This document shows positions 8,796-55,499 of a DNA stretch of 64,000 bases, one piece after another (position 1 is the stretch's first letter; each line of letters starts with the position of its first letter). The position numbers were made by a program, and so were the translations under genes. The notes beneath the pieces were generated by a model. That model was not told the origin of the DNA. It saw only the letters and a program-made list of their open reading frames with translations, and did no database searches. Source of the DNA: Siphonodentalium dalli (Eukaryota; Mollusca; Scaphopoda; Gadilida; Siphonodentaliidae). The stretch spans positions 204,277,934 to 204,341,933 of the forward strand of contig CP136063.1 in assembly GCA_032622095.1 (NCBI GenBank), read 5' to 3'.

Positions 8796-8872
8796 CTACA
8801 AAGAGATCAAATAAGGGGATAATTATGTCGCGTTTGGTCACTTTCAGTGGTAAACTGCTCACTATTTGTCAC

Positions 8873-9620
8873 AAATTTATCGCGAAAGGCTGATAGCGGA
8901 CATATTTATCGCGAAAGACTGATAGCGGACATATTTATCGTGAAAGGCTGCTGGCGGACATATTTATTGGAAGAGGCTAATAGAGGACAGATCATTGTGA
9001 CAGGCTTATAGATGACATATTTATTGTGACAGGCCGATAGCTGACATATTTATTGTGACATGCTGATAGCCGACAGCTTTATTGTGAGAGGCTGATAGCG
9101 GACATATTTATCTGAAGAGGTTAATAGAGGACAGATTATTGTGACAGGCCGATAGCTGACATATTTATCGTGACAGGCCGATAGCTGACATATTTATTGT
9201 GAGAGGCCGATAGCTGACATATTTATTGTGACATGCTAATAGCGGACAGCTTTATTGTGAGAGGCTGATAGCGGACATATTTATCGTGACATGCTGATAG
9301 CAGACAGATTTATTGTGACAGGCTGATAGCGGACATATTTATCGGGAGAGACTGATAGCGGACATATTTATTGTGACAGGCCGATAGCGGACATATTTGT
9401 TGTGATATGCTGATATCGGACAGCTATATTGTGAGAGGCTGATAGCAGACATATTTATTGTGACAGCCTGATAGCGGACATATTTATTGTGATATGCTGA
9501 TAGCAGACAGATTTACTCTGACAGGCTGATAGCGGACATATGTATTGTGACAGGCTGATAACAGACATATTTATTTGACAGGCAGATAGCGGACATATTT
9601 ATTGTGACAGGCGGATATCA
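8873..9620. repeat. Minisatellite, 29-bp unit, about 25 copies
   Basis: The unit is close to CTGATAGCGGACATATTTAT followed by TGTGACAGG. Units start 29 bases apart (for example 8890, 8919, 8948, 8977). Variants alternate between CGCGAAAGG, TGTGACAGG and TGTGAGAGG endings. It lies in an intron of the minus-strand dehydratase gene. There are no unique spacers, so it is not a CRISPR array. Confidence 0.9.
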
Positions 9621-46975: not shown

Positions 46976-48472
46976 ACACACATGCCTTGTAATTATCAAC
47001 GCAATAATGTGCAGCCATAAAAAGCACTCAGCCAATTCACGACTTTTTAAAAACAAATTTAATAGTCCCTCAATTAACATCGCTCTTACCGATATAAATA
47101 CTGATAAAGATGAAAAATAATGGCACATCAAATAGAAATATGCACAATTAGTTTATGCAGTAACTGATATCTTTGTCAGATTTTTATCGGCGACCTGACC
47201 CAGATCGGCCGGTTTTGATTTGACCCTGAACTTGAAAAATGGAAAATTGTTTACTCAATGTATGAGTATTTCACACCGCCTCTGTATCGGTTCAAGAAAT
47301 TTTGTCATATGATATCAAGACGATGATATTCAGGGGATAAAGTTGTGTTCGGAAAGGTACATGGCGAATATAGTATCTGTCAAATTTACTAAATGACGAC
47401 GCCACAAGCGACGCCGTTGTTTTGTTTATATAGCAACCAGGTATCTGAAATAAGCTTCTGTCAAAATTCACGCCTAAGAATACCGAACGTTGGCGCCGGT
47501 CGGGTCTACTTAAATTTCTGACAGTTCATCGATATTGACCCGCCCCCCATTTCAAGCGATATATTTGCAGCTATTGCATTAGAATTTGGATTAATATTTG
47601 TAAAAATAATTATAACTATACATTGAGAAAGATTATTCTCCATTTATATTTGATCACCCTATACCGAAGTGTTTCACTTCACTTTAAATCACAGAAGAAC
47701 GCGTCTTTGAATACATACGTATACAAACCCATGACTGACTCGGGGGAGGGGTGACCGGTGGTCAGTATATTTGTTCAACTTTTTTGTTTTGTTTTTGGTA
47801 GTCATGTTGCTTTGCCATTACTCTTTATTTATTTTTCAGTGTAATAACCAATGGGAGATGTGGCACCCATATGTGTGTCAGCACTTAATTGTACTCCAAT
47901 TCCATTGTCTGTATAAAAAGTGTATATGTTATATATCATGTGTTACATAAATTAGACTAATAAATATTAAAACGAAAGAAAAAAGCTACATATCTAGAAA
48001 AAAGGGCATAAAATTTGATAGAAATATAGCTCACACTAGCCGAATCCACAGCGCAACGGCAACGGAGGAAACATGTACCTTAACGATGGCAACTCCCCAT
48101 TCAAATTAAATAATAATTGAAACGTGTTGCTTTTCGTCGTTGATAAAAATAAGTGCCTGTGGTAAACTGTGGGCGTATAATCAGGCAACCAAGACAGAGC
48201 CGTTATATCACGCTGGTCATATATACGTGAACTCATACACCGGTGAGAAGACTCGCACAACGGGACAATGTTTTCATTTTTTGTCGACTCGCTACAGAAA
48301 AGTCGGGCAGTATTAACAAAATAAAACTTAGAACGTTTGGGAGAGAACGGTCTATGGAATGCATTTGTCCATTTACCTCAATTATGTGTCATATTTGTGA
48401 AAAATATATTCGAAATACTAATCTCATTCATTTCCCTCTATTTTAGTATTTCCGCCGTTTATGGGGGCTTTC
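46976..48472. other. Unassigned region
   Basis: No gene was recognised. Small open frames lack domains. Confidence 0.3.
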
Positions 48473-48604
48473 TGTAGCGAATTTGGGTATTGTAATTTTA
48501 CGTCGTGGACTATAAAATAAACACCGTTTGACCTCGTCTGAAGGCGGTCACATTGCGTCACATTTGACCCCAGTAAACAACTGTGGGACAGCCAATCAAC
48601 GTGT
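48473..48604 (+). repeat. 132-bp direct repeat, left copy (LTR-like) with TATA box
   Basis: It begins TGTAG and ends CAATCAACGTGT. It matches 54009-54140 base for base in length, with only about three differences, all near its start. It contains GTGGACTATAAAATAAACAC, a good TATA box. The gag-like gene lies between the two copies in the same orientation. It is short for an LTR and lacks a standard TG..CA frame, and I saw no clear primer-binding site. Confidence 0.6.
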
Positions 48605-49239
48605 TTACCTTGCATAAATTATTTTTGCCTGATAATATGTCCATTTTTTCTAGTTTTTCAAATAATTGATAATTTTTGCTCTGATATTGCCATTTTTTGC
48701 CATAAATGTTTTCATATACAATGCCTATTATCCATTTTTGTATGCCAATCCAGATTTTGACATCCAATTTTGCCATGTTTGTCCTTATTGCATACCAAAA
48801 TGTTCAAATGTTTCAACTTCAATTTTGCATTTATTTTATTGCTCTAATGAATGTCAACAAAACCTAATTAAAAGTAACATCAAGCTCATAAGAAGTCAAA
48901 TACTACTTCAGGTCATTTGTTACATGTATTTATATGCCAATATTAACATATTCTTATATTCTGTAACATTTTTGAGGACAGCTATTCCACAATGTTTACC
49001 ATATCAAAGAGGGAGTAGGTGTGGAAGATATTAAATGACAAATTAAATCAGACTAATGTTCTGCATGAACTATAAGGACTGTAAATAAAATGTGAATGCA
49101 GATTCACCTTACCACATGTCCAAACACATGCAAACAATACATAGTCTACAATGTCTATATTACCAGTGAGTTGCAATAGCAACTGTTATGTTATTTATGG
49201 TCTATCAACTGTAAATTCACCCAACAGTACCCAATATAT
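48605..49239. other. Leader region of the gag-like element
   Basis: This is AT-rich sequence, and a 122-codon frame at 48666-49034 is composition-driven. No domain was recognised. Confidence 0.35.
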
Positions 49240-50418
49240 CAGCAATTGGAATCAAAAAGTTTGAATAACCAAACTAATCTCTATGCTCAGCAATTGGAAT
49301 CAAAAAGTTTGAATAACCAAACTAAACATCCCTATGCTCAGCAATTGGTATCAAAAAGTTTGAATAACCAAACTAATCTCTATGCTCAGCAATTGGAATC
49401 AAAAAGTTTGAACAACCAAACTATATATAAACATCTCTATACTCAGCAATTGGAATCAAAAAGTTTGAATAACCAAACTAAACATCTCTATACGCAGCAA
49501 TATGTTCAAGGTGAAACTATTGGTGCAAATTCCACATAGGTGCATAGTTTTAATAACCATACTTTTAAATTACAAACATACTCACAATGCAGTGTGTCAA
49601 GTAAAACGATTCTTAATGTCACTTATTACAATTCACTGATGCCAAAGTCATCTACTGAAATTCATGATCAAAATGTGTTAGCATTCTGTGGTACTTCTGT
49701 TCTTCAGAGCAGTCATCGGGAACTTAACACTGAAAATAACATTCCACAAACAAATGCTTTACCAAAAGAGCCACAAAAGGTTATTTCGCCTTCCTGGTCT
49801 CAACCTAATTATTGAGCTTTGAATGAAACTTTGGATAATAAAGTTCAAAATATCATCCAGCCTGTATCAGTTATACTAACCTCATATTTATCATATGCAC
49901 CTGCTGAAAACATAAATAATTATCAACCATTTATTCCAAATCAGCAGACATCATCTGCAATGAAGTTGAATGACATATCTATGACATTAAGTGCTAACCA
50001 TCATTCCATTCAAAAAGCACCTATTGACTTAAAAATCCAAAAATCACCTGTGATACATGTAGGTAATTCATGTGTTCACAAATCAAGCAGTACAAACTGT
50101 GAACAACCATGTGATCCTATACCACAAACATTATATTACATGTATAATGACAAAGAAGATTGGCTAACATATCAAATAAGATTCTGTCAGTTTGCCAATC
50201 AGGAAAACCTAAGTGAAATTGAAAGAATTGCCACTCTTCAACAATGTTTGTCTGAATATGCTCTCAAAATATTTAAGACATGTTCCATGAAAAATCCAAT
50301 CATGACACCAATAGCTATTATGTATGAAATGGAACACATGATGCAAAAGTCTGAAAATACTCGGACAGAATTGGATGACGAAACAATGCCCCAAATTCTA
50401 GGAAATAAACCCCGATAA
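49240..50418 (+). pseudogene. Gag-like ORF with N-terminal repeats, two in-frame stops
   Basis: One frame runs from about 49246 to 50418, interrupted by TAG (49537-49539) and TGA (49813-49815). Its first ~85 codons are five repeats of QQLESKSLNNQT plus a variable linker (LYA, KHPYA, IYKHLYT). Near the C-terminus, DWLTYQIRFCQFANQENLSE and IERIATLQQCLSEYALKIFK resemble the helical Gag core of LTR retroelements (W..Y..RF..FA.....E..R...L..CL...A). No zinc knuckle, protease, reverse transcriptase or integrase was found downstream, so the element looks non-autonomous. The DNA of the N-terminal repeats is the hairpin array described at 49258-49563. Confidence 0.55.
49258..49563 (+). repeat. 5' hairpin array: AGTTTG-AATAAC-CAAACT
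   Basis: Five 18-base hairpins at 49258, 49306, 49357, 49405 and 49462 (one has loop AACAAC), plus a degenerate sixth at 49546. They lie inside the gag-like reading frame and encode KSLNNQT. Arms and loop match the pattern of the 3' array at 53054-53780. Confidence 0.8.
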
Positions 50419-51300
50419 TTTCCAATTGATTGGGTAGTAAATAATAACTCTAAAGGTACCCTTGGTGAAATCCAAATTATTGACACAAAACGCGGAGAGC
50501 CACTGATCAAGTATTCTCCACAACATACAAATAAAGGTAGCTTAACTGATGCATACTCAAAAAGCGGGGAGAATTTAACCAGAAATTCCCCCACAGCATA
50601 TAAATTCAGAAAGCTTAGATGAGTCATGTGTTTCCCATCAAAAGTCAGATAACAGTGATAATGCAATATCTGACAAACTCTGTTCATATTCAGAATGTTC
50701 AGAAATATGGGAATCTTTTGATATTTTAACTGATGTGTCAGAAACAATTCTCAATGAAGATATTGAGGAAATCGAAATCATATATCCAACTAAAAGTGGT
50801 ACAAATGGTGCTCATGGAACTGAAGCAACCAGCCTTACCGCAATGACATGTGATAAAATAAGTCTGAAATAACCAGACATAACCAAATCAGACAATGACA
50901 GATGTGAGCTGGAGCAAATATGTGAAATATTCCACAATAATACAATAAGTGGAATGATCCAAAATAAAGCCCACACAAATGAAATGAGTCATGGCTACCT
51001 GCCAGATGTTGAAACTATAAATTCAGAAGGTAGATGCCTGTCATTGGAAATCCCAAACTTCACTGAAACATTCGGTCATGGTACAGTAACGTCCCCCAAA
51101 TTGACAAATATTTACCAATGTATAAATCAGAAGCTCAAAGTTTTGTTAATAGTTTCACAAACAATAAATCTGACAAATTGCCATTGTATGACAGTTCAAT
51201 TGAAAAGATCAGTCAATTTGCTGATCAGCATGATGATACATCCAAATGTGATGAATGGATGTTCGCTTTAAATTGGAGGAAAAATAAAGTCAATTAAAGA
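50419..51300 (+). pseudogene. Decayed continuation of the gag-like element
   Basis: Frame-shifted pieces (SDNSDNAISDKLCSYSECSE; EDIEEIEIIYP; 50954-51271) are acidic and Ser/Asn-rich, with no enzyme motif. A purine-rich TTGGAGGAAAAATAAAG lies near 51274-51290. GAATGGATGTTCGCTTTAAA (51253) recurs at 52924 as GAATGGATGTTCCCTTTAAA. Confidence 0.35.
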
Positions 51301-51789
51301 CTGACCAAGTAGTAGTATTAGTAGTAGTAGTAGTAACATATTTATTGTGCCATGAAATATAATGGATTAAATTACAAATTAGATATATTTATACATGTGA
51401 TGTGGCAACAGGGGGTTGGAGTACAAGTTATGCAACTTATTGATGATCCTCTCCCCGTATTCAGAAGCACTCATGAGGATATAGTAAAGAGATGATAGTG
51501 CTGATCAGAAAAGGATATACCAAGTTTAGATGGTTAAAGTAGGGGAAGATGTATACATGGGTTCGGACCTCAATTTTTTTAGAAAAGGATAAGATCCAGG
51601 TTGTTTCATTTTTCTCTGTGGAAATGGTGGTTAATCAAATGTAATCTGTGAAATATGTTTCATGCCTTATACTAGACATCAATTGTTATTAAGGTAAATT
51701 TCCTCATAATAGGTCCGGAGCCATGGATACACCCTTAAGTATATGATGGCGGTGTTGTTGCTGCAATGGGATCAGAAAAGGGTGTCGTA
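51301..51789. other. Unassigned spacer with an AGT microsatellite
   Basis: An (AGT)n tract lies at about 51310-51335. No gene was recognised. Confidence 0.35.
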
Positions 51790-52740
51790 GTCATAGAATT
51801 CATATTATTATTATTATTATTGCGCTCGTGTTAGGCCTCAGATAAAACGACCAGATGTCGAAATATAAGATTGTACTATTTCAAATAAACGACTATTTAA
51901 TTCATTGCTCATCTTTGGTATACCGAATAACAGGTCGATTACAGAAGTAACATGGATATTCGATCTAGTAAATTTTTCCAGCATTAATTGCCTGGCTTGG
52001 TTGTATAAAGAACACTGTAAAAAATAATGATATGCGTCTTCACAATGATGACCGCATTGGCAAAATGAGTTGTCGCCAATATGATTCCGTTGTTTATCGA
52101 AATTTAGGTCACTACAATTATTTCGTAATCTACATTGTAATACGTTCAATTTTCGTTGTCCTGTTTTTTAGAATGGTGGCGGTTTCGGAATATCTACTGT
52201 AGCCCTACAAGCAGTATACATTTTGGCAAGCACTGTGTTTTTATTGAATTCGCCCTCTACTTTCGTGGTGACAGTGTTCCATTCCGAGATCATAGACGGA
52301 ACAAAGGAGGATCTCATGTGTGCACTTCTATTATTGTCATGTCTCATCCATAGAGGGTTTCTAAGTGGGTAATCGGTCAATTCACCAGATGTTTTGGGTA
52401 TCAAAGATGTTAGGTATATTGGAGATTTCCCATCAATTGTTTTATGCCATATACGTAATTTGTGCATTTTTCGTCTTTCTTTGAGTTTGGTCCAATCAGT
52501 TTATATTAGCACCCTGTCAGATGAGGCTGATCGTGTAAGGCCAGTAACAATGAGACCGGCCTTGATCTGTAATCGCTCTAATTTGTCCAAAAGATTGTCA
52601 GGAACATTGCTCCAGTCTACATCACCATATTCAATTAGAGGTAAGATATATGTTTTATACATAAGATCAAGAATTTCTCTGTTAACTAAATTTTTTATTT
52701 TACGGAGCTGTGCTGACCAAGTCAGTCGACAATGACTGGA
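51790..52740 (-). mobile_element. 5'-truncated LINE, C-terminal part and tail
   Basis: Reading the minus strand from about 52735: REILDLMYKTYILPLIEYGD, DNLLDKLERLQIKAGLIVTG, LKERRKMHKLRIWHKTIDGK and SPIYLTSLIPKTSGELTDYP. After one in-frame stop, LQCRLRNNCSDLNFDKQRNH is followed by CQCGHHCEDAYHYFLQC (putative zinc knuckle), and the coding part ends at 51838. An (AAT)n-like tail at about 51798-51820 marks the 3' end. It is the same general family as the LINE at 25780-31290 but a different copy. It is inserted antisense within the gag-like element. Confidence 0.8.
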
Positions 52741-53053
52741 ATCCTAATTTCAGATTAAGCCAAAAGTTAATGAAAAAGTGATGAAGCCCATCACACTGTG
52801 TCCCATGTTATATTAAAACAAAAGAGATGAAATAATTTAGTATGGCTACCAATTTACCATATTCAAGTTAACTCATCTCTCCCTAACAGTGATAACAGAT
52901 ATATGTGTTATCTATTCCAGTATGAATGGATGTTCCCTTTAAATGGGAGAAGAAAAACAATTAACTTAGTCTATTAAAGAATGTCTCATTCGCCACTGAC
53001 GTAGTAGAAGGCTTGGTCATCAATCCAGCAGTGGTACATTAGTTGATTTGAAA
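52741..53053. other. Gag-like element 3' region, purine-rich duplicate
   Basis: GAATGGATGTTCCCTTTAAA and TGGGAGAAGAAAAACAA (52924-52960) resemble 51253-51290. Either could be a polypurine tract; this is inference. Confidence 0.35.
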
Positions 53054-53780
53054 GACTTGAATCAACCAAGTCTGGATCAACAGAATCATGGTGATTGCAC
53101 AATAATTTGCACAATAATCCTCCTAATGAAATAGGTTCAACCAACTGAACCAGCATTAAAAGGTGCATGTACAAAATGTTCAATTACTAAATCGCCAATA
53201 AAAATTTGTGAATTCTAATAAGATCTATATTATTCCAAAATACTCACATATGGGGACGATTAAAATGAAAGTAAATGTCTGTCCAGACGACACTTTCAAA
53301 ATATGTGAGGAATATACATAGTTACAATTTGGAGGGCTAATCCAAACAAGCACACATCTACGTGTATTCTGTACCTGGCTAAGCATATGTAAATTTAACA
53401 TGAGAGAGCGGTATAAGCCTATATAAACTATTTCCATAAATGACTTGAAAAACCAAGTCACCTTTGCCAGTTGTTACCGGTATACTTAAGGTTTGAAATA
53501 CCAAACCAGAAGGTACATACTCTAGAAAGTTTTGAAATTCCAAACTAGGTGCCAGTTGAATACATGTCGGTAGTTTATCTAAGATCCAGTATATTTAAGG
53601 TTTGAAACACCAAATCAATTTATACTGCGTCAAAAGGTTTGAAAGACCAAACCAATTCAAGTTACATAAAGTATCAAGACTCAAATGGTTTTAAACACCA
53701 AACCAACTTATATAGAGGGTCAAAAGGTTTCAAACACCAAACCAAACTGTATAAAATTAAAGGCTTGAAATACCCAAGCC
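53054..53780 (+). repeat. 3' hairpin array with covarying six-base arms
   Basis: Ten copies start at 53054, 53134, 53441, 53490, 53528, 53599, 53636, 53687, 53726 and 53762. Left/right arms are GACTTG/CAAGTC (two), GGTTCA/TGAACC, GGTTTG/CAAACC (two), AGTTTTG/CAAACT, GGTTTG/CAAATC, GGTTTT/CAAACC, GGTTTC/CAAACC and GGCTTG/CAAGCC. The loop is usually AAANAC. Five of six stem positions change in pairs, while sequence between hairpins differs. No reading frame runs through them. Confidence 0.85.
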
Positions 53781-54008
53781 AGTATCTGTCTTAAATCTTG
53801 AATAAATTATAAATTCAAAAATCAATAGTCAGAGAGCGGTAACCTGGTTATAGTACTGAAGAACTAATCACTGGTTCAAACTATGATCGGAAAACCCGGT
53901 AACCCTATTTTTGCGATGTCAGGGTTTTGGCTCATATAGTCATTGTACACTCCACCTATTTTGGCAAGCAAGGTGTTTTCATTCTTTTCAAAATAAAACT
54001 TGGTGGTG

Positions 54009-54140
54009 TGTAGTGAATTTGAGTATTATAATTTTACGTCGTGGACTATAAAATAAACACCGTTTGACCTCGTCTGAAGGCGGTCACATTGCGTCACATT
54101 TGACCCCAGTAAACAACTGTGGGACAGCCAATCAACGTGT
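54009..54140 (+). repeat. 132-bp direct repeat, right copy (LTR-like)
   Basis: It is almost identical to 48473-48604, with differences only near the start. Its TATA box, CTATAAAATAA, is intact. It lies about 230 bases after the last 3' hairpin. An AATAAA lies downstream at about 54248. Confidence 0.6.
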
Positions 54141-54833
54141 ATGATTCGGCCAATTCCGGGAAACATCACGGAGAATCCCCGATGATGATGACAGAAACAC
54201 TCGATCCACGACAGCTACAACATTAACTGAAAAGTAACTCTTGGATTCAATAAACTGCATTGAAGATGATTCGTTATAAATGATGTTGACATGTTCCTGA
54301 TATTAAATATATGTGAGTAATAATGTTGTTCTATAATATTCATTGTAGTAGATAAAACCCATTCCCAACTATACTACATTTCTAGTCTCTCTCAGAGAGT
54401 ATTTAGTATTTCATTAGACGGATTAACATCTTGGCTTTCTTCCATGTGAAAACCAGCTGTTTTGACAAGATGAAACCTGGGCAAATTGTGTGTGTTTTGA
54501 AACTCGGTATTCTCATGACGCAAACTCCCACAACGGGTTTGAATGCCACGCTCTTTAGATGATCGAAGTGTGTTTGCACCAAGTATACGCCGGGTAAATG
54601 CTGATATAAAATACGATTAACACACATATAATAGGTCTGTTGAGAACGAATTATGGGTCATTTTAAAAATGCTTTCAACTACAGATGATGCACACATAAA
54701 TTGACACAAATGAGTGGGTTAGTTGCCATTATTGCATTATTTTTTTGCATTAAGAGACAACACAACGAAAGCCCGATTTCTGTAATTGCACTACGGTATG
54801 ACATATAATATGAATGTGGACTCATATAAGGAT
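54141..54833. other. Unassigned spacer
   Basis: No gene or repeat was recognised. Confidence 0.3.
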
Positions 54834-54988
54834 TAACTGTCATGTGGACTGTTTTTATGGAGATGTAACCGTGAGGTAAGTTGTCATAAATTGTGTAAAA
54901 CCCGAAGGGTTTTACATACAAGTTATGACCACTTATCTCACGGTTACATCTCCATAAAAACAGTCCACATGACAATTAATCCTTATAT
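54834..54988. repeat. Long hairpin, ~60-bp arms with an inner hairpin
   Basis: ATATAAGGATTAACTGTCAT, GTGGACTGTTTTTATGGAGA and TGTAACCGTGAG are matched inversely by CTCACGGTTACATCTCCATA, AAAACAGTCCACATGACA and ATTAATCCTTATAT. The centre contains a second stem, GTAAAACCC/GGGTTTTAC. Few mismatches are seen, so it is a young foldback. Confidence 0.85.
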
Positions 54989-55499
54989 TTATATACATTT
55001 AGCGAAAAAGCCGATTTTGTAAATGTATTTAAATCGAAAAGTGTATCGTGACAAAACCAGCCCAAAATATCCCATAGCACCCTTGGCAAAAGTTAACAGG
55101 AACAATTGAAACCCGATAATTTATTAAGTCAATCCTGCGCGATTCCAAATGCGCCAAAAACATTACGCGTTCGTCTTTCCAAACCCAAATGACGTATCGA
55201 TGTTGTTATGAGCTTGCAGTTATGAGCTGTTACGCATTCACCGAGAAATAATTGCAACTAGCCACGTGGGCGCCGACCAATCGGAATGCTGGATTTAGTG
55301 ATGATCACACTTAGTGTGTAAATATACAACTATCCATGTATAAATGTGCTGCTATATATGCTTTATCACACAACATACATATGTCAAAGTTGTTATTATG
55401 ACACATCTCGTCTGAAAGTTGTTTTGCCTCAACCATTGTAATAACTTACATTTATGCAGGTACCTTTTAAAAATTGACGGTCGCTATATGTCAATACAC
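54989..55499. other. Unassigned spacer
   Basis: No gene was recognised. Confidence 0.3.

What the first reader, a model, noticed from the sequence alone, without database searches (positions are those of the whole stretch)
53054..53780. 3' array of ten small hairpins with paired (covarying) arm changes in a gag-like element
Seen: ten hairpins of 18-20 bases with six-base arms and an AAANAC-type loop. Arms change together: A-T with G-C at position 1, G-C with A-T at position 2, T-A with C-G at position 3, also at positions 5 and 6. Spacers are not conserved. Inference: the folded form, in RNA or single-stranded DNA, has been under selection, perhaps as a packaging, dimerisation or protein-binding array. 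I know of no described retroelement with such a terminal array.
Basis: partly seen in the sequence, partly recalled or inferred. Interest (0 to 1): 0.82.

Follow-up and report, generated by a model that had tools for sequence, protein, structure and literature searches.

The report
Loop-matched RNA hairpins in linked retrotransposons
A self-copying DNA element in this genome carries many small RNA hairpins with different stems but the same loop, and a larger, protein-making relative carries them too, so they may be handles by which the small element's RNA is recognised and copied by the larger one's machinery.

Summary
The hairpins are real. They belong to a 5.9-kb LTR retrotransposon copy (48473-54378, 4-bp target duplication) of a short family, F1, whose gag-like frame shows no protein-level selection (N/S 2.9, neutral 2.8). 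The array is only part of the pattern. In F1 copy L021, hexamers AANNAC are flanked by six-pair stems in 15 of 40 cases against 14 of 4499 other hexamers, on six distinct stems (four unrelated) in leader, gag region and 3' UTR, and in 0 of 15 on the antisense strand. The same holds for F2 (10 of 134 against 37 of 11736), a Ty3/gypsy-like element with protease, RT, RNase H, integrase, PHD finger and an added TatD nuclease, which shares F1's ends, leader hairpin and 3' hairpins. Stems change at 1.7%, flanks at 4.2%. An F1 copy with F2-type R-U5 and leader suggests joint reverse transcription. Best reading: AANNAC hairpins are repeated, loop-recognised protein-binding sites in sense RNA, probably packaging signals that F1 uses in trans. 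Binder and packaging are inferred; independent compensatory events are few, and decaying copies show no wobble bias.

The parts
48473..54378 (+). whole F1 retrotransposon copy (with a nested LINE-like insert and a deletion of about 0.8 kb behind the 5' LTR remnant)
   Evidence: LTR ends TGTAG...CTACA and comparison with six two-LTR copies
48469..48472 (.). target site duplication TTTC, left
   Evidence: 5 of 6 other two-LTR copies show 4-bp duplications, L022 does not
54379..54382 (.). target site duplication TTTC, right
48473..48604 (+). 5' LTR, truncated remnant of 132 nt
   Evidence: 98% identical to 54009-54140; LTR longer in other copies
54009..54378 (+). 3' LTR
48892..48909 (+). leader hairpin 2, GAAGTC-AAATAC-TACTTC, 5 of 6 pairs here, 6 of 6 in L021
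49180..50415 (+). gag-like frame remnant, interrupted by stops; one segment related to F2 gag capsid
   Evidence: neutral N/S
49258..49479 (+). five hairpins AGTTTG-AAYAAC-CAAACT in 48-57-nt tandem units (starts 49258, 49306, 49357, 49405, 49462)
50349..50366 (+). hairpin GTCTGA-AAATAC-TCGGAC in the gag region
51311..52712 (-). nested LINE-like insert; duplication CTGACCAAGT at 51301-51310 and 52713-52722
   Evidence: duplication; LINE identity rests on a sub-threshold zf-RVT match (E 0.2) and on the look of the frames
53054..53072 (+). hairpin GACTTG-AATCAAC-CAAGTC (6-nt AATCAC loop in most copies)
53134..53151 (+). hairpin GGTTCA-ACCAAC-TGAACC
53442..53459 (+). hairpin H1 GACTTG-AAAAAC-CAAGTC (in F2 it spans the TatD stop codon)
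53490..53743 (+). GGTTTG-type hairpins, starts 53490, 53528, 53599, 53636, 53687, 53726
53762..53780 (+). hairpin GGCTTG-AAATACC-CAAGCC
53850..53884 (+). hairpin H6 GAACTA-ATCAC-TGGTTC with outer stem ATAGT/ACTAT; in F2 GAACCA-AAATAC-TGGTTC with outer TAGC/GCTA
   Evidence: alignment A1 and pair counts
53989..54008 (+). tract before the 3' LTR, conserved in F2 and in the other TatD families aligned

Best explanation
F1 is a short, probably non-coding LTR retrotransposon that depends on F2, a Ty3/gypsy-like element with Gag, protease, RT, RNase H, integrase, PHD finger and an added TatD nuclease. Both RNAs carry a set of small hairpins: a 6-bp stem of almost free sequence and a six-base loop AANNAC. 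They sit in the leader (79 nt behind the LTR in L021, about 93 nt in L029, on top of a longer stem), in the gag region and in a 3' UTR array. The loop is read, in sense-strand RNA, by a protein made by F2 (most likely Gag), and several hairpins per RNA act together so that this RNA is selected, packaged and reverse-transcribed. F1 keeps and multiplies the hairpins because they are its ticket into F2 particles. Shown: anatomy, loop-stem association, strand, sharing with F2, slower stems, no protein selection on the F1 frame, an F1/F2 mosaic copy. Inferred: identity of the binder, packaging as the step served, cooperation between hairpins, dependence on F2.
For: Loop-stem association: L021 15 of 40 AANNAC against 14 of 4499 other hexamers; repeated left arms counted once 6 of 30 against 8 of 1919 (p 2e-8); the three related arms merged 4 of 28 (p 2e-5); similar in the other four F1 copies tested. 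A scan of loop lengths 4-8 and all end-dinucleotide classes gives AA-AC, length 6, as the only sense-strand class with three or more distinct stems in L021 (p 2.4e-9) and in both F2 pieces scanned (3.4e-7, 2.5e-4), and none in L062-L064 from three other TatD families (those three pieces end at TatD, without the 3' UTR). F2 pooled 10 of 134 against 37 of 11736; antisense 1 of 36. Rest of the window 5 of 678 against 634 of 115514. Stem substitutions 37 of 2160, flanks 861 of 20631, loops 36 of 1080. Leader: one pair G-C in 12 and A-U in 11 of 26 copies, another C-G, U-G or U-A. F1 gag-frame N/S 2.93 pooled (neutral 2.79) against 0.66 for F2 TatD (neutral 2.56). L015 mosaic.
Against: No binding or packaging was measured. 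The F1/F2 covariation rests on few events: parsimony gives 3 changes per side at the best leader pair, and the number of pairs with a change on both sides and the number of pair types did not exceed shuffles (127 and 500 of 500; 87 and 248 of 500). One-sided stem changes in copies were 3 to G-U, 9 to A-C, 12 to other mismatches and 3 to Watson-Crick, so no wobble bias. In F2 coding sequence one hairpin (GGGAAT) lies in a stretch alike in other families and may be chance. Several F1 leaders have mismatches in the outer stem, and L017 has lost the leader hairpin. The F2 3' UTR has only four hairpins with this loop, so a long array is not essential.
Confidence: 0.5

Rival explanations
1. The hairpins are binding sites for a host RNA-binding protein that serves nuclear export, stability, translation or silencing of the element RNA; both families keep them for that reason, not for packaging.
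For: A sense-strand loop motif with nearly free stems and a place in the 3' UTR directly at the F2 TatD stop codon fit a host factor as well as Gag.
Against: A host factor would be available to the other TatD families too, yet the pieces of three of them scanned show no such loop class (3' UTRs not in those pieces). The strongest structure lies in the leader behind the primer-binding region, where packaging signals usually lie (recalled).
Confidence: 0.25
2. Mostly duplication and inheritance: one hairpin-bearing unit of about 37-51 nt was amplified in tandem, and conservation reflects recent common ancestry; the fold has little function now.
For: Neighbouring units share spacers and unit number varies between copies; LTR identity is 98-100% in 5 of 6 two-LTR copies; AGTTTG, GGTTTG and GACTTG stems are alike; few independent compensatory events.
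Against: Unrelated stems with the same loop in leader, gag region and 3' UTR cannot come from tandem duplication of one unit. With related arms merged the association stays (4 of 28 in L021, p 2e-5; 8 of 132 in F2, p 3e-8). Stems change less than flanks.
Confidence: 0.15
3. The palindromes are DNA sites: dimeric DNA-binding protein sites, cruciforms or recombination points.
For: Arms are inverted repeats; F2 Gag begins with a helix-hairpin-helix motif, a nucleic-acid-binding fold.
Against: Half-sites differ while pairing is kept; orientation is one-sided (L021 15 of 40 sense, 0 of 15 antisense; F2 10 of 134 and 1 of 36), unexpected for duplex DNA sites.
Confidence: 0.05

Closest known systems
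Multiple packaging signals of satellite tobacco necrosis virus (loop -A.X.X.A-) and MS2 (PMC3662417, passages seen)
   Same: many small stem-loops along a genomic RNA with a short loop motif of fixed A's and free middle bases
   Different: plus-strand RNA viruses, with in vitro assembly data there; here an LTR retrotransposon, a hexaloop AANNAC, and binding untested
TR-GAG elements: plant LTR retrotransposons with a lone GAG frame (PMC8704663, passages seen)
   Same: two LTRs, one gag-like frame, presumed help from a relative with the full set of proteins
Ty1 RNA dimerisation and packaging region (PMC5454406, listing and start of abstract only)
   Same: structured 5' region of an LTR retrotransposon with packaging and dimerisation roles
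   Different: kissing loops there; AANNAC loops cannot pair with each other
GACG tetraloop hairpins of gammaretroviral packaging signals (recalled, from no call)
   Same: a loop motif repeated on different stems in the leader, recognised by Gag
   Different: confined to the leader; other loop
Ty3/gypsy (Metaviridae) elements
   Same: F2 has gag, aspartic protease, RT, RNase H and integrase in that order
   Different: F2 adds a PHD finger and a TatD-family nuclease frame behind integrase

Membership tests
LTR retrotransposon (F1) | two direct LTRs with TG...CA ends and a short target duplication | tested here: met
   six two-LTR copies, LTR identity 98-100% in 5 of 6 (L017 85%), TGTAG...CTACA; 4-bp duplication in 5 of the 6 (not L022) and in the window copy
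TR-GAG-like gag-only element | single frame coding for a maintained GAG | tested here: not met
   701-aa open frame in L021 holding the gag-like segment (its window copy matched F2 gag), but N/S 2.93 pooled over seven comparisons, neutral 2.79; no Pfam gag or CCHC match for it
Non-autonomous partner of F2 | shared LTR ends, tract before the 3' LTR, leader and 3' structures, no pol | tested here: met
   no pol match among the F1 frames searched (window pieces; L021 frame); other F1 frames not searched
Non-autonomous partner of F2 | mobilised by F2 proteins | not testable with these tools
   indirect only: mosaic L015
Ty3/gypsy element (F2) | PR-RT-RNaseH-IN order | tested here: met
   frames of L020; the copy has in-frame stops in gag and between protease and RT
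Ty3/gypsy element (F2) | placement in an RT tree | not tested
   no tree of RT built
STNV/MS2-type multiple packaging signals | many stem-loops with one loop motif and differing stems in one RNA | tested here: met
STNV/MS2-type multiple packaging signals | loop-specific binding by the capsid protein | not testable with these tools
   no binding data
Structured RNA with covariation | compensatory changes beyond relatedness | tested here: inconclusive
   covariation score reached by 4 of 500 shuffles (leader) and 0 of 500 (H6), but few independent events and two measures not above shuffles; R-scape not available
Known Rfam family | match at gathering score | tested here: not met
   0 matches in the window

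The most novel reading that the evidence does not exclude
A Ty3/gypsy lineage selects its genomic RNA through many dispersed AANNAC hairpins read by Gag, in the manner of small RNA viruses, and a non-coding satellite element has survived by keeping and multiplying these hairpins, travelling in the larger element's particles and recombining with it.
Probability: 0.4. Interest if true: 0.8.

Novelty: new variant of a known kind. Interest (0 to 1): 0.62.

Why it matters
How LTR retrotransposon RNA is chosen for packaging is known in few cases, and how non-autonomous elements are recognised in trans is mostly guessed (recalled). Here a short loop motif, which an unguided scan also returns, marks both a protein-coding element and its likely parasite on several unrelated stems. 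That gives a testable code (AANNAC on a 6-bp stem) with natural variants, and would extend the multiple-packaging-signal idea from RNA viruses to retrotransposons. It also brings to light a Ty3/gypsy-like lineage carrying a TatD nuclease.

Tried and rejected
Rejected: dimerisation by kissing of AANNAC loops with each other (not self-complementary). Not borne out: that TatD-carrying families in general have AANNAC hairpins. Twenty other 3' regions were fetched; other hairpins or tandem units were seen there, no AANNAC class was counted over all of them, and the loop-class scan of three longer pieces without 3' UTR gave nothing; the L042 repeats look like a separate satellite. A wobble test on copies gave no support for RNA (3 G-U against 9 A-C). 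Not pursued: primer tRNA (candidates read are ambiguous) and host species. Never answered: the whole-genome search with the L021 frame, so F1 copies were not counted that way.

Rows dropped: L015 from the leader alignment because an insertion broke the search pattern. In one search: hits of the other family, hits under 80% identity, hits with a gap in the hairpin, loci L010 and L062-L064, loci not in the database made (L042-L044, L065 on), and array units of F1 beyond H4; the reference copies themselves were counted. In one search: F1 hairpins gagA (stem 0 of 83) and gagB (0 of 94), whose loops are of another type, were left out of the pooled test.

Literature. TatD with retrotransposon and gypsy gave one unrelated paper; TatD with LTR retrotransposon two, unrelated by title and start of abstract; Ty3, gypsy, PHD finger and mollusc none; packaging signal with retrotransposon, stem-loop, gypsy and gag one unrelated. 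Passages were seen of PMC3662417 and PMC8704663; all other papers only as listings.

Full report
1. Where the finding lies. The ten hairpins lie towards the 3' end of an LTR retrotransposon. In this copy the 5' LTR is cut to 132 nt (48473-48604) and the 3' LTR runs to 54378; the copy is flanked by the duplication TTTC. A LINE-like piece is nested inside (51311-52712, minus strand; duplication CTGACCAAGT), and compared with other copies about 0.8 kb is missing behind the 5' LTR.

2. The observation. Strict hairpins of at least 6 pairs in 53054-53780: 8, against 0.97 on average and at most 4 in 200 shuffles; with G-U allowed the count (10) is within the shuffles' range (maximum 11). The motif with up to three mismatches is found 12 times in the window, all on the plus strand and all in the element, against 0.31 expected. 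The stretch 53436-53786 folds better than 100 of 100 shuffles.

3. Copies. A pattern search of the whole genome with up to two mismatches gave 804 places against 548 for the reversed control pattern. Of the 20 places fetched with long flanks (all chosen for a perfect GGTTTG hairpin), 10 are F1 (gag-region or LTR match to the window), 9 are a second type (F2) that in this comparison matches only in the 3' region at 72-79% identity, and one (L010) is a third type. Six F1 copies with two LTRs have LTRs of about 350-385 nt, identity 100% (L021) to 85% (L017), with 4-bp duplications in 5 of 6.

4. F2. The F2 copy read in pieces as L029 and L020 holds: an LTR; a gag with a helix-hairpin-helix motif (E 4.6e-9) and a PNMA-like capsid (2.8e-6); protease, RT, RNase H, integrase and PHD finger; then a frame ending in a TatD DNase domain (2.6e-36; nearest solved sequences are TatD/YcfH nucleases). 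This copy has in-frame stops within gag and between protease and RT. Hairpin H1 spans the TatD stop codon, and the 3' UTR ends in the same tract and LTR start as F1. F1's gag-like frame is related to F2 gag (BLASTP 1e-6 for the pair). F2 frames show protein selection: N/S 0.44-0.85 in the TatD frame over eight comparisons and 0.62-1.0 in pol over the four of five copies that aligned (neutral about 2.6), weaker in gag, 1.0-1.82 over three (neutral 2.7). The F1 frame does not: N/S 2.35-9.5 over seven comparisons, all with L021, 2.93 pooled, neutral 2.79. So F1 looks like a non-coding rider with a gag relic.

5. The hairpin code. Taking every hexamer of an F1 copy as a possible loop, without regard to stems, AANNAC stands out: L021 15 of 40 flanked by six pairs against 14 of 4499 other hexamers; L014 14 of 42 against 12 of 4507; L025 11 of 34 against 16 of 4397; L015 15 of 42 against 11 of 4543; L017 10 of 45 against 18 of 4793. 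With repeated left arms counted once: L021 6 of 30 against 8 of 1919 (p 2e-8), the others 4-5 of 28-37 (p 5e-5 to 1e-6). AGTTTG, GGTTTG and GACTTG are alike; merged, L021 has 4 of 28 (p 2e-5). On the antisense strand the count is 0 in all five. A scan over loop lengths 4-8 and all end-dinucleotide classes found AA-AC with length 6 as the only sense-strand class with three or more distinct stems in L021 and in both F2 pieces scanned; the antisense scans show the mirror class GT-TT with fewer stems, as they must, and one weak class (p 0.0012) in L020. Pieces of three other TatD families, ending at TatD, gave no class. The rest of the window: 5 of 678 AANNAC against 634 of 115514 others. In F1 the stems are GACGCT and GAAGTA (leader), AGTTTG and GTCTGA (gag region), GACTTG and GGTTTG (3' UTR), and with related loops GGTTCA, GGCTTG and GAACTA (3' UTR). 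In F2 they are GACACT (leader), ACCAAA and GGTGCA (gag), GGAACA, CTTTTG and GGGAAT (pol), GACTTG, GGTTTG twice and GAACCA (3' UTR): 10 of 134 against 37 of 11736 (p 9e-11), coding parts alone 6 of 129 against 34 of 10996 (p 6e-6). The GGGAAT case lies in a stretch alike in other families and may be chance; without it the coding parts give 5 of 128 (p 8e-5).

6. Conservation. Over 19 hairpins in F1 and F2 copies (within-family matches of at least 80%, reference copies included), stems differ at 37 of 2160 positions, loops at 36 of 1080, flanks at 861 of 20631 (p 5e-10 against flanks and 0.003 against loops). For five single-copy F1 hairpins: stems 9 of 475, flanks 278 of 6222 (p 0.003). Copies are related, so these p-values are too small, but the direction is consistent. 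Against the RNA reading, one-sided changes do not favour G-U (3) over A-C (9), with 12 other mismatches and 3 to Watson-Crick; most are probably decay after insertion.

7. Leader and 3' structures. Behind the primer-binding region of both families a longer stem carries the AANNAC hairpin. In 26 copies (A2, 17 distinct) one inner pair is G-C in 12 and A-U in 11, and one outer pair is C-G, U-G or U-A. Covariation score and doubly changed cells are reached by 4 and 1 of 500 shuffles, but pairs with a change on both sides (127 of 500) and pair types (500 of 500) are not unusual. Parsimony on a leader tree gives 3 changes on each side at the best pair. Predicted folds have z -3.3, -4.0 and -6.6 in the three leaders tried. 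H6 with its outer stem gives 17 doubly changed cells and a covariation score that 0 of 500 shuffles reach, on 19 aligned copies that include five of a distant family which does not form it; pairs with a change on both sides (87 of 500) and pair types (248 of 500) are not unusual. In L047, of a family about 50% alike in TatD, the aligned place reads GGGCC-T-AACTAC-T-GGCTC: same loop class, another stem, one mismatch.

8. Mosaic. At sites that separate F1 from F2, copy L015 follows F1 in 104 of 110 in its first 200 nt (U3), F2 in 138 of 155 from 201 to 550 (R-U5 and leader start), is mixed from 551 to 850 (6 F1, 15 F2, 1 neither) and follows F1 in 21 of 29 beyond; its 3' LTR shows the same switch (96 of 99 F1, then 81 of 97 F2). 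Its gag region matches F1. A second place (C3:290895147) with an F2-type leader (L076) lies 4.1 kb before hairpins with F1-like spacing at C3:290899286 (that array was not fetched). Template switching between F1 and F2 RNAs in one particle would give this, though recombination between DNA copies is not excluded.

9. Mechanism and rank of certainty. Shown: element anatomy, loop-stem association with differing stems, sense strand, sharing between F1 and F2, slower stems, neutral F1 frame, mosaic. Inferred: recognition by F2 Gag and a role in packaging. A host protein is the main rival. The closest known behaviour is that of the -A.X.X.A- loop signals of satellite tobacco necrosis virus (PMC3662417, passages); gag-only elements of plants (TR-GAG, PMC8704663, passages) are the closest element type, but F1 fails the test of a maintained gag. 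Searches for papers on TatD in LTR retrotransposons and on gypsy packaging stem-loops found none on the subject; the library holds only part of the literature.

Noticed in passing
L020:1775-7793, L018:4661-7793 and the places: Ty3/gypsy-like elements with a PHD finger behind integrase and a further frame ending in a TatD-family nuclease domain; one search lists 107 matches from the 104 candidates scored of 1463, many with long open frames at 37-55% identity, so the lineage looks large and diverse.
   Followed up: partly
L029:1535-2545: The F2 gag frame begins with a helix-hairpin-helix motif (HHH_3, E 4.6e-9), unusual for a Gag as far as I recall.
   Followed up: no
window 53948-53956 with 54002-54010; same place in L047, L043, L049: The tract before the 3' LTR and the LTR start could pair with a stretch upstream (CACTCCACC with GGTGGTGTG, one mismatch; CACACCACC in L047; ACACTCAA with TTGAGTGT in L043 and L049), read; the partners differ between families. 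The one automatic listing of this stem was out of register.
   Followed up: partly
L056, L058, L059 (3' regions of another TatD family): A tandem array of about 38-39-nt units (for L058) with repeated GCTGATT...AGTCAGT hairpins behind the TatD frame; L055 and L057 show yet other repeated units.
   Followed up: partly
L015 and G000:C3:290895147-290899576: F1-like elements with F2-type leader: a mosaic lineage with probably at least two copies.
   Followed up: partly
window 54813-54999: Inverted repeat with 82-nt arms, 89% complementary, 23 nt apart, just outside the element.
   Followed up: no
window 8871-9617: 29-bp tandem repeat, about 26 copies.
   Followed up: no
L042:1-554 (stored strand): 164-bp tandem repeat, 3.4 copies, with ATGGCTGCTGGCGGCCAT; similar sequence stands beside the LTR in L009.
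   Followed up: no
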